The notes beneath the pieces were generated by a model. It saw only the letters and a list, made by a program, of their open reading frames with translations, did no database searches and was not told the origin of the DNA. From JBFLXN01 sp040755715 [NCBI: Candidatus Edwardsbacteria bacterium] (GTDB lineage Bacteria > Edwardsbacteria > AC1 > JBFLXN01): a DNA stretch of 11,006 bases. The translations under genes and the position numbers were made by a program. Position 1 is the stretch's first letter; every line of letters starts with the position of its first letter. Below are positions 16 through 7,394 of the stretch, piece by piece. The DNA lies in assembly GCA_040755715.1 (NCBI GenBank), contig JBFLXN010000087.1:1-11006 (forward strand), read 5' to 3'.

Positions 16-132
16 CTACAAACATATCGCTCCTCTGGAGCTAATATGAATAAAGCTCCGTAGGAGCAATCTGTTTGTAGTATTTCGCAAAAGCAATATG
101 TTTGTAGCTCCGTAGGAGCGACCTGTTTGTAG
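16..132. repeat. REP-like palindromic repeat cluster 1
   Basis: Four copies of a repeat of about 28 bp. Each has a small hairpin, GCTCCGTAGGAGC or a variant, followed by a tail close to GATATGTTTGTAG. The copies are 16-43 (minus orientation, hairpin CTCCAGAGGAG), 54-80 (plus), 81-107 (plus, hairpin half decayed to CGCAAAAGC) and 105-132 (plus). The same unit recurs near 6675-6856. The hairpin plus conserved tail resembles REP/RAYT-type elements, but no RAYT transposase is in the window. The bases from 133 to 306 hold no gene or repeat that I can recognise. Confidence 0.8.
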
Positions 133-306
133 TAGTAGAGATTGAATATCTGTTTCTTGCATTTTATTTAAACCTATTTCACAGGTCAAAATATTTTTAA
201 AATCCCTTGCCCAGCAAAAAGGAATTGAAAGAAATCTTTTAATCAAAAAGTTCATCAAAAACATTCTTTATTCAAAAGAGCAAATGCAAATAAACCTTTA
301 TTATTT

Positions 307-479: not shown

Positions 480-704
480 AATTCGTATTAATAAAACTGG
501 CTCCCCGGGTAGGACTCGAACCTACAGCCTTGCGGTTACAAGCACCCCTGAATTACTCCAGGGCTTGGACTATCTCACATCCCGCCAGATGACGGGACTC
601 AGGCGCTTCCCATCCCAAGATTATCGGAATAGTACTCCCTTGCGGGATAGTCTCTGCACCTTCCCCGACATAACGTCAGGGCTTGGCTCAGGATTGTCCC
701 CATC

Positions 705-1064
705 TTACATCGGGATTTCCCTGAATTCACCTGATTTTTCAACCACGATTGCTCGTGGAAGCTGCAACCCGGTATGCATCTCCCGATGACAATTGGCGCA
801 TAACATTAGGCATTTATCAAGTTCTTCCCTGACTTTTTTCCAGCCACGGGTATATCCTTTTTTAGATATGCCGAAGTCTTTTTTAGAAGAACTTGGATGA
901 TGGAATTCCATTGCTTCCATGCATCGATGGTAACCGCAGACTTGGCCTCTTCCGCCCTTGTATTTGATCGCCATCTGCCGAATCTTTTTTCTCCTCTTTC
1001 GGACAGCCTCAATCAAATATTGTCTCCGGTCACGATAGCGCCTCTTGTCAATCTTTGGACTCAT
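705..1064 (-). CDS. HNH homing endonuclease, intron-encoded
   Basis: A 119-aa protein encoded wholly inside the tRNA-Asn intron. The N-terminal third (residues 4-40) is very basic and may bind nucleic acid. The HNH zinc-finger core spans about 41-97: C43-x4-C48, then EFHH (53-56), an SSSKKDFGIS segment (58-67), W75, and KCLMLCANCHREMH (84-97), whose C89-x2-C92 completes a Cys4 zinc site. H55/H56, N91 and H93/H97 are candidate HNH residues. The family cuts DNA, and an enzyme in this position would be expected to cut intronless tRNA-Asn genes and spread the intron by repair. The start at 1064 is preceded by AAAGGTGG only one base upstream. The last 20 or so residues, after the final His, are encoded by ribozyme sequence (guide, P2, P3, P4, P5) and may be a translated readthrough of RNA structure. 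The reading frame looks intact. Confidence 0.9.
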   Translation of the reverse strand: MSPKIDKRRYRDRRQYLIEAVRKRRKKIRQMAIKYKGGRGQVCGYHRCMEAMEFHHPSSSKKDFGISKKGYTRGWKKVREELDKCLMLCANCHREMHTGLQLPRAIVVEKSGEFREIPM

Positions 1065-1065
1065 A

Positions 1066-1073
1066 CCACCTTT
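1066..1073 (-). promoter_or_regulatory. Shine-Dalgarno-like site at the very start of the intron
   Basis: The first eight intron bases, AAAGGTGG, resemble a ribosome binding site, with only one base (T) before the ATG at 1064. The spacing is shorter than the usual 5-9 nt, so initiation may be weak. Because the site begins at the splice junction, translation would have to use unspliced precursor or free intron RNA. Confidence 0.4.
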
Positions 1074-1119
1074 ACAGCCGCTTGCTCCACCATTGAGCTA
1101 CCGGGGAACCTTTAAACAA

Positions 1120-4868: not shown

Positions 4869-4946
4869 TTGAGTTTGTTGAGTTTATTGGGTTTATTGGG
4901 TTAAACTCAATAAACTGGGTCAACTCAACAAACCCAATAAACCCAA
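4869..4946. repeat. GTTTATTGGGTTTATTGGG word repeat, inverted
   Basis: Left part 4869-4902 repeats GAGTTTGTT, GAGTTTATT and GGGTTTATT. The right part (about 4904-4946) carries the reverse words AACTCAATAAA, CAACTCAACAAA and CCCAATAAACCCA. Together they can fold into a long imperfect hairpin. It fills the space between the gene at 4953-5507 and accA. Confidence 0.75.
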
Positions 4947-6528: not shown

Positions 6529-6944
6529 AAAATTAGTTACCTCTGTCAATTAAGAATTAAAAGTGGACACCTAAAATGCTATAACCTATTAAGCGCTATT
6601 TGAAAAAAGAGATTGAAAAAAACATATCCCAGGAATTTTGGGGTGTCAAGAAATGGTATCTACAGAAAGCTATTTAACTCCGTAGGAGTTATATGTTTAT
6701 AGCAAAAAATTGTAACACAAGGAATTTAGCTCCGTAGGAGCGATATGTGTATATGTATTAGCCGAGCATTTACCCCGTATTTCGTCCCGCCAACGGCGGG
6801 GCTATGTGGCTTCGCAATTGTTCTATATCTATAAACATTTTGCTCCTAACGGAGCTCTCAAAAATTTACTAAGATATATTCCATTTCAATTTTTCAAACT
6901 GTCCACTTTTAAATTTTAGCTAACACAAAATTAGTTACCTCTGT
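6529..6944. mobile_element. MITE-like insertion with 18-bp direct repeats
   Basis: AAAATTAGTTACCTCTGT occurs at 6529-6546 and again, identical, at 6927-6944. Just inside are inverted ends: TTAAAAGTGGACA (6557-6569) and TGTCCACTTTTAA (6900-6912), a perfect 13-bp match. The insertion plus one direct repeat is 398 bp. It has no transposase gene, so any movement would need an enzyme encoded elsewhere. It contains three REP-like units and a CCCGCC palindrome (6786-6800). Removing 6529-6926 rejoins the FlgD-like domain in frame, so this is a real insertion into older coding sequence. An 18-bp duplication is long for most insertion sequences, and I cannot name the family. Confidence 0.75.
6675..6856. 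repeat. REP-like palindromic repeat cluster 2
   Basis: Three more copies of the unit seen at 16-132: 6675-6702 (plus, AACTCCGTAGGAGTT with compensating stem changes), 6727-6755 (plus, GCTCCGTAGGAGC) and 6829-6856 (minus orientation, GCTCCTAACGGAGC). The paired changes in the first copy keep the hairpin, which suggests the structure matters. All lie inside the MITE-like insertion. Between them a CCCGCCAACGGCGGG palindrome occupies 6786-6800. Confidence 0.8.
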
Positions 6945-7087: not shown

Positions 7088-7394
7088 TTATCTCATTAGA
7101 ATCATCTTCTTTGTCGCCGTAAAATCACCAGCCCTCAAGCGATAAAAATATACACTTGACGCTACAGGTTTTCCGCTTTCATCCTTACCATCTCACCTCA
7201 CCCTCCCCCTCTCCTAACCCCTCCCTTCCCTCCCCTTGTCCCGCCAGAGCGGGATCCCGCATTTGCGGTGAAGGGGAGGGTGAGGGTGGGGTTACCTCAT
7301 TAACCAACGTCCTCACTAACTGCCCCGCAACATTGTAGATTTTCAAACTGACTTTACTGTCATCTGCTATCTGATATCGGATATCTGGATTATG
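7088..7394 (-). pseudogene. First FlgD-like C-terminal domain remnant, split by a palindromic insertion
   Basis: From 7394 one frame reads HNPDIRYQIADDSKVSLKIY, then NVAGQLVRTLVNEV, a typical start of a FlgD-like or type IX sorting domain. A GC-rich palindromic block (about 7193-7291) follows and breaks the frame. Beyond it, from 7192, the domain resumes in another frame as DGKDESGKPVASSVYFYRLR, AGDFTATKKMILMR and a stop at 7088. The two halves together match one complete domain lacking only the short stretch usually ending in W before DGKDE. The upstream gene is missing: the reading frame at 7367-7711 overlaps the beginning in a different frame and is unrelated. The region is therefore a broken gene end. 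Confidence 0.75.
7193..7291. repeat. CCCTCACCCTCCCC palindromic insertion
   Basis: The plus strand begins CTCACCTCACCCTCCCC and ends GGGGAGGGTGAGGGTGGGG, so the block folds into a large hairpin. Its centre holds two small hairpins: TCCCGCCAGAGCGGGA (7239-7254) and CCGCATTTGCGG (7257-7268). The word TGAGGT (minus strand) lies at both edges and may be a target duplication. It lies exactly between the two halves of the FlgD-like domain, so it was inserted there. Confidence 0.7.

What the first reader, a model, noticed from the sequence alone, without database searches (positions are those of the whole stretch)
498..1107. tRNA-Asn(GUU) split by a group I intron that carries an HNH endonuclease
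The two tRNA halves, 535 nt apart, join to a perfect acceptor stem, D, T and anticodon arms only when U35 is joined to U36. That makes the 5' exon end in U and the intron end in G, as group I chemistry requires. The well-known bacterial tRNA group I introns that I recall are in Leu(UAA), Ile(CAU), Arg(CCU) and fMet. Asn(GUU), interrupted inside the anticodon and mobile through an HNH enzyme, is not among those. I cannot say it is unreported.
Basis: partly seen in the sequence, partly recalled or inferred. Interest (0 to 1): 0.88.

Follow-up and report, generated by a model that had tools for sequence, protein, structure and literature searches.

The report
Self-splicing intron inside an asparagine tRNA
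An asparagine transfer-RNA gene is cut in the middle of its anticodon by what looks like a self-splicing RNA intron carrying a small DNA-cutting-enzyme gene; relatives sit at the same spot in many bacterial groups and in some virus-like contigs.

Summary
Confirmed. On the minus strand, 1107..498 is a tRNA-Asn(GUU) gene with encoded CCA, split after U35 by a 535-nt group I intron (1073..539). Joined, the exons read as tRNA-Asn. The ribozyme core scores 76 bits against RF00028, E 2.7e-18; on 38 related cores 37 of 54 base pairs show changes on both sides. The 119-aa ORF is HNH-type (phrog_2255, 1.3e-24). It starts in the P1 loop and reads on through the guide sequence, P2, P3 and into P4-P5. It has Gly where 19 of 21 aligned relatives have Cys, so its present activity is doubtful. 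In 49 of 54 genomes with this intron no intact tRNA-Asn was found, among them one titled complete, which suggests working splicing. The kind, tRNA anticodon-loop group I introns, is known; a 2025 preprint on a novel tRNA intron site in Patescibacteria could not be read and may pre-empt the site. Splicing and homing are inferred.

The parts
1074..1107 (-). 5' exon of tRNA-Asn(GUU), positions 1-35, ending ...CTGT
   Evidence: ARAGORN on joined exons
539..1073 (-). group I intron, 535 nt, begins AAAGG, ends CUUG
   Evidence: Junction; RF00028 76 bits at 817..546
498..538 (-). 3' exon of tRNA-Asn, U36 to encoded CCA
   Evidence: ARAGORN on joined exons
705..1064 (-). 119-aa HNH-type ORF, start codon at intron nt 10; lies in the P1 loop, its 3' part overlaps the guide sequence, P2, the 5' strands of P3 and P4 and the start of P5; Gly at residue 40 where 19 of 21 aligned sequences have Cys
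   Evidence: ORF; phrog_2255 E 1.3e-24; alignment
1066..1072 (-). possible Shine-Dalgarno AAGGUGG, made of intron nt 2-8 (inference)
   Evidence: Read from sequence; homologous L001 has AAAGGAGGTG in the same place
760..765 (-). internal guide sequence GCAGCU, pairs with exon GGCUGU (1079..1074): P1, 6 pairs with U35.G at the splice site
   Evidence: GCAGC invariant in 38 of 38 aligned cores
743..758 (-). P2 hairpin, CCACGA/UCGUGG
   Evidence: helix 1: 6 of 6 pairs with changes on both sides
728..734 (-). P3 5' strand UCAGGUG
   Evidence: helix 2; partner 605..599
599..605 (-). P3 3' strand CGCCUGA
   Evidence: helix 2
687..725 (-). P4-P5 (P4: UUCAGG 725..720 with CCUGAG 692..687)
   Evidence: helices 3-4; helix 5 is a gap in the window's row
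647..652 (-). P7 5' strand GACUAU (guanosine site)
   Evidence: helix 8; 5 of 6 pairs invariant in 38 rows
568..573 (-). P7 3' strand AUAGUC
   Evidence: helix 8
580..597 (-). P8 hairpin
   Evidence: helix 9
546..563 (-). P9 hairpin CCCUGGA-GUAA-UUCAGGG
   Evidence: helix 11
540..566 (-). P9.0 pairing AAG 566..564 with CUU 542..540, just before the terminal G (539)
   Evidence: helix 10, 3 of 3 pairs with changes on both sides

Best explanation
The locus is a tRNA-Asn(GUU) gene interrupted between U35 and U36 by a group I ribozyme. After transcription the intron folds: the 5' exon (GGCUGU) pairs with the guide GCAGCU, guanosine bound at P7 attacks after U35, the exons are joined at U35|U36, and the tRNA is completed. 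The intron's HNH-type ORF fills the P1 loop and runs on into the core. In active relatives its product would cut the conserved anticodon region of intronless tRNA-Asn genes, and repair would copy the intron in. Shown here: anatomy, family, covariation, distribution, and that intact copies are seldom found beside the split one. Inferred: splicing in vivo, DNA cutting, homing. For this copy the endonuclease may already be decaying.
For: Joined exons give tRNA-Asn. RF00028 E 2.7e-18 over the full model; 8 of 8 relatives scanned also reach the gathering score. 38 cores: 96.9% of 2009 cells paired, 37 of 54 pairs with changes on both sides, covariation score 0.567 against 0.164 shuffled and at most 0.095 when slid. 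Same junction in 101 rows including the window (L139 and L140 repeat L116 and L097). With the guide anchored to the P3/P4 motif, which worked for 89 of 101 rows, it lies at intron nt 300-353 in 18 of 18 rows with a full HNH motif and at 5-91 in 61 of 61 rows without HNH-like frames, 49 of these at 20 or less; this puts the ORF in the P1 loop. HNH: phrog_2255. 49 of 54 genomes with the intron show no intact tRNA-Asn, among them G001, holding L019, titled a complete WWE3 chromosome.
Against: No RNA data. The window's own genome is not held, so a second tRNA-Asn there cannot be excluded. 5 of 54 such genomes do hold an intact tRNA-Asn match (ARAGORN confirms four, G016 was not checked). Absence by exact pattern in incomplete bins is weak evidence. 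P10 is not conserved: a run of 3 or more pairs in 16 of 101 rows, 4 in the window. P7 hardly varies, so covariation does not test it. The window ORF lacks a conserved cysteine, and Pfam sees HNH only at E 0.55. Viral loci L015, L016 and L018 with other split tRNAs gave no RF00028 match at the gathering score.
Confidence: 0.92

Rival explanations
1. A dead tRNA-Asn copy with a relic intron, the cell using another tRNA-Asn gene.
For: The window's genome is not held; 5 of 54 genomes with this intron also hold an intact tRNA-Asn match (four confirmed); the ORF has a lost cysteine.
Against: Exons intact with encoded CCA; the helices scored can form in the window's own row, except helix 5, where that row has gaps; 49 of 54 bearers show no intact copy.
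Confidence: 0.05
2. The ORF is not a homing gene of this intron but an HNH gene that came to lie beside a ribozyme by chance.
For: Similar HNH proteins occur in many phages (361 phage records, best places all under 60% identity).
Against: 21 alignable ORFs (the window, L001 and 19 others) lie in introns at this tRNA site, and in 18 of 18 rows that could be anchored the full-motif frame ends beyond the guide.
Confidence: 0.05
3. Vertical inheritance from an old bacterial intron rather than repeated transfer.
For: CPR HNH proteins form one side of a branch (84/84); 11 WOR-3 rows, two of them repeats, form one group (99*); the window's HNH lies in a starred set with two WOR-3 proteins (97/93*).
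Against: The window's core groups with L047 (Elusimicrobiota) and L081 (Omnitrophota), 96* and 96*, not with the WOR-3 group, while its AccA and gene order point to WOR-3; WOR-3 rows L146 and L147 fall elsewhere again. The host assignment is an inference and the trees are short.
Confidence: 0.2

Closest known systems
Bacterial tRNA group I introns (Leu-UAA, fMet, Ile-CAU, Arg-CCU)
   Same: Group I ribozyme in the anticodon loop of a tRNA gene
   Different: Host tRNA is Asn(GUU) and the site is U35|U36; from recall, not from a call, the Leu introns sit after U34 and the Ile and Arg introns after U36
Cyanobacterial tRNA-fMet intron endonuclease (Bonocora and Shub 2001; only the title seen, in the reference list shown)
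   Different: Other tRNA; enzyme family and ORF position were not compared here
Group I intron cores in phage genes (annotated terminase of Aeromonas phages phiA009 and phiA019 and of DSS3_VP1; psbA intron of S-CBWM1)
   Same: 73-79% nucleotide identity over about 90-106 bases of the core (15 of 24 records listed)
   Different: They lie in protein genes
[quoted passage not shown]
   Different: Text not held; which tRNA and site it reports is unknown to me

Membership tests
Group I catalytic intron (RF00028) | Conserved core P3-P9 with P7 guanosine site | tested here: met
   76 bits, gathering 50; covariation in all helices but P7, which hardly varies
Group I catalytic intron (RF00028) | 5' exon ends in U paired with G of the guide; intron ends in G | tested here: met
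   U35.G765 and terminal G539. The search pattern required the terminal G, so its recurrence in relatives is not independent
Group I catalytic intron (RF00028) | Self-splicing activity | not testable with these tools
   Indirect only: 49 of 54 bearers without an intact tRNA-Asn match
Bacterial tRNA group I introns, subgroup IC3 | Insertion in the anticodon loop | tested here: met
   After U35
Bacterial tRNA group I introns, subgroup IC3 | Subgroup IC3 structure | not tested
   No subgroup models were at hand; IC3 would be a guess from host gene and size
HNH homing endonuclease | Sequence similarity to HNH endonucleases | tested here: met
   phrog_2255 1.3e-24, phrog_3106 2.2e-21; Pfam HNH only E 0.55
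HNH homing endonuclease | Two pairs of cysteines, taken as zinc ligands from recall | tested here: not met
   First cysteine is Gly in the window; Cys in 19 of 21 aligned sequences
HNH homing endonuclease | Cuts the intronless allele | not testable with these tools
   No bench data

The most novel reading that the evidence does not exclude
One lineage of HNH-bearing group I introns has settled at U35|U36 of tRNA-Asn(GUU) across dozens of phylum-level groups and in virus-like contigs, mostly in the only tRNA-Asn gene found. Because the ORF starts at the first intron bases and runs through the guide, P2, P3 and into P4-P5, translation and splicing of one RNA molecule exclude each other, so that translation of the enzyme could throttle the supply of Asn-tRNA and act as a switch.
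Probability: 0.2. Interest if true: 0.65.

Novelty: new member of a known kind. Interest (0 to 1): 0.45.

Why it matters
A standard tRNA finder with default settings misses this gene (ARAGORN), so a genome that carries it can look as if it lacks tRNA-Asn, an essential tRNA. If bearers rely on the split gene, decoding of asparagine depends on a ribozyme. The family, with intact, decayed and absent HNH genes at one site in many phyla, is a natural series for studying the gain and loss of homing genes. Whether the site has been described in print is open.

Tried and rejected
Rejected: P1 formed by the exon with the intron's first bases (AAAG/GUGGU), mostly G.U pairs; the downstream guide GCAGC is invariant in 38 of 38 aligned cores. 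Rejected: the placing of the first helices by the RF00028 alignment from 817 onward, which conflicts with the guide and P2 found by comparison. Rejected: reading ARAGORN's 'Thr(tgt)i(33)' calls as tRNA-Thr introns; scored by script, the rows I checked have the 5' exon CTGT and are Asn.

Sorting of hits. Of 114 genome stretches: 84 tRNA-Asn split after U35, 15 intact tRNAs (false hits, Thr-like), 1 tRNA-Lys split (L044), 14 with no 5' half found. Of 15 viral stretches: 5 Asn split, 1 (L014, same contig as L001) with the 5' exon cut off, 3 intact, 3 Lys-like split, 2 Thr-like split, 1 (L010) none. Of 12 WOR-3 stretches: 11 Asn split, 1 (L143) without a 5' half.

Corrected on the way: the guide choice (nearest to 235 nt from the 3' end) was wrong for 8 rows (L029, L060, L070, L089, L093, L096, L101, L111) when anchored to the P3/P4 motif, and 12 rows could not be anchored. 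The core tree and the P1 and P10 counts still rest on the first choice; the window and the 38 rows of the alignment are not among the 8.

Led nowhere: one search used a badly spaced pattern and its 5 hits are not tRNAs; ignored. One search (7 genomes, one mismatch) gave many chance hits; used only to see an intact copy in G024 and none in G001. The looser pattern was not run on uninterrupted genomes, so it has no control of its own. Plasmids: no match. L006 intron in named phages: no match. No structure prediction was run.

Literature: ten searches, the cap. In the listings, abstracts and passages I saw, none describes a tRNA-Asn group I intron in bacteria; most listed papers were not opened, for example the chloroplast paper PMC9840617. 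Most subscription papers and all bioRxiv preprints are outside the library.

Full report
Observation. The minus strand of 1107..498 holds both halves of a tRNA-Asn(GUU) gene with encoded CCA, 535 nt apart. ARAGORN finds no tRNA in the window by default and tRNA-Asn(GTT) when the halves are joined or introns are allowed. Acceptor, D and T stems are fully paired; the anticodon stem has 4 of 5 pairs. All eight equal shifts of both ends by 1 to 4 bases are still read as tRNAs, Thr or Tyr, so the junction rests on group I rules and on relatives, not on the cloverleaf alone.

Ribozyme. cmscan gives RF00028 at 817..546, 76 bits against a gathering score of 50, E 2.7e-18, over the whole model. The stretch folds better than all 20 shuffles, z -8.0. 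I aligned 38 related cores, chosen from 101 rows. On a structure of 54 pairs, drawn mostly from these rows' own consensus, 96.9% of 2009 cells are paired and 37 pairs show changes on both sides; the covariation score is 0.567, against 0.164 in shuffles and at most 0.095 when partners are slid. RNAalifold alone predicted 49 pairs, 37 with changes on both sides. P7 hardly varies and so is not tested by covariation; its sixth pair is absent in 24 of 38 rows. P10 is not conserved.

Where the ORF lies. Each of the 101 rows has a GCAGC or GCAGT that can pair with the exon end CUGU. A first choice among copies, by distance to the 3' end, gave guides at 5-167 in 70 rows without HNH-like frames and 300-466 in 21 rows with a full HNH motif; it was wrong for 8 rows. 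Anchored to the P3/P4 motif, which worked for 89 of 101 rows, the guide lies at 5-91 in 61 rows without such frames (49 at 20 or less), at 300-353 in 18 rows with a full motif, and at 77-327 in 10 rows with partial or deviating frames, the window (308) among them; 68 rows have 6 continuous P1 pairs, 7 have 5 and 14 have 4. So the ORF fills the P1 loop. In 18 of 18 anchored full-motif rows the frame ends beyond the guide, as in the window, so its 3' part also encodes ribozyme parts. In three of these rows (L043, L098, L129) the first start codon comes only at intron nt 114-236, a sign of broken frames.

The protein. Pfam finds nothing at 0.001 and HNH at E 0.55; PHROGs gives HNH families at 1.3e-24 and 2.2e-21; no solved structure is close (best E 0.093). 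Twenty-one sequences, taken by length and a histidine motif, align (20 rows including the window, plus L001). The window has Gly at residue 40 where 19 of 21 have Cys (L068 has Tyr). L055 keeps the two ends of the HNH gene with the middle missing. This fits a cycle of gain and decay of the endonuclease, as an inference.

Distribution. Sorting by script gives 84 tRNA-Asn genes split after U35, 15 intact tRNAs, 1 tRNA-Lys split, 14 without a 5' half. For 60 of the 84, record titles give an NCBI phylum, 30 different names, many of them CPR; 24 give none. Nearly all are metagenome bins and may be misbinned. In viral contigs 5 of 15 stretches are split tRNA-Asn genes. L001/L014 is a contig with terminase- and portal-like genes and a recombinase, judged by eye, beside a split tRNA-Asn whose 5' half is cut off, so there the tRNA may be the host's. 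The 101 rows are these 84 and 5, 11 from the WOR-3 phylum search (L139 and L140 repeat L116 and L097), and the window.

Is splicing needed? For 44 genomes (45 of the 84 loci, chosen by me) a strict pattern for intact tRNA-Asn matched in 2. In 147 genomes of the phylum of L097 it matched in 92 and the split form in 12, both in one, G134. A looser pattern on 54 bearers (the 44 and 10 more of that phylum) matched in 6; four are tRNA-Asn by ARAGORN, one is no tRNA, and one (G016) was not checked. Counting G016 as intact, 49 of 54 show no intact copy. G001, holding L019 and titled a complete WWE3 chromosome, has none. Absence by exact pattern in incomplete bins is weak one by one; the contrast with uninterrupted relatives carries the weight.

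Host and movement. No genome is held for the window. Its AccA is at most 67% identical to proteins of the phylum of L097, Stahlbacteria or WOR-3; the best genome, G056, has DUF4388-like, AccA and PorV-like genes in that order, judged by eye, where the window has one more ORF between the last two. Yet the intron core groups with L047 (Elusimicrobiota) and L081 (Omnitrophota), 96* and 96*, apart from the 11-row WOR-3 group (SH-aLRT only). The HNH tree puts the window with L065, another Elusimicrobiota bin (89/71), inside a starred set with two WOR-3 proteins (97/93*); L065's own core does not group with the window's. Core and HNH gene thus point to partly different kin. Horizontal transfer is the better reading, not a proof.

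Literature. I saw passages of the 2014 review (PMC3984707), whose main text has no 'Asn' or 'HNH' and says phage introns observed to date were all in protein genes; of tRNAscan-SE 2.0 (PMC8450103), which names fMet and Ile2 introns; of a cyanobacterial tRNA paper (PMC5733544); of PMC8172020, which says some tRNAs of its genomes had group I introns without naming them in the passages shown; and of PMC11835236, PMC8155191 and PMC6125680. The reference list of PMC12641178 names the 2025 preprint on a novel tRNA insertion site in Patescibacteria, which is not held. I therefore file the window's intron as a new member of a known kind.

Noticed in passing
L008, L012, L015 (viral contigs), L044 (Alphaproteobacteria MAG): tRNA-Lys-like genes (CUU or UUU by the script's loop) interrupted at the same relative position, introns of 219-697 nt.
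   Followed up: no
L016, L018 (viral contigs): A tRNA with a Thr-like loop interrupted by a 792-nt insert; no RF00028 match at the gathering score.
   Followed up: no
L004, L006, L007, L013, L017: Split tRNA-Asn genes in viral contigs, three of them (L004, L006, L013) beside dense tRNA arrays; the 2014 review says phage introns observed to then were all in protein genes.
   Followed up: partly
L055, L096, L129, L137: Partial or broken HNH-like reading frames inside the same intron, apparent stages of decay.
   Followed up: partly
L074: A MAG titled Klebsiella pneumoniae carries the split tRNA-Asn; its exons resemble those of L055 (Aminicenantes) and L092 (Acidobacteriota), so it is probably mislabelled or misbinned.
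   Followed up: no
L077 and L090 (both in G027), L148: One genome bin with two different split tRNA-Asn genes and an intact one.
   Followed up: no
L149 (G002): The intact tRNA-Asn of this bearer lies in an array of 24 tRNA genes within 3 kb, which looks phage-like.
   Followed up: no
window 43-134 and 6665-6756: Four copies of a 40-nt repeat around CTCCGTAGGAG, 68-85% alike, in two pairs 52 nt apart.
   Followed up: no
window 7215-7294 and 4869-4946: Imperfect palindromes of about 70-80 nt (74-88% complementary), possibly small non-autonomous elements.
   Followed up: no
L047:6742-6818: A group II intron match (RF00029, 48.9 bits) on the same 6.8-kb contig as a split tRNA-Asn.
   Followed up: no
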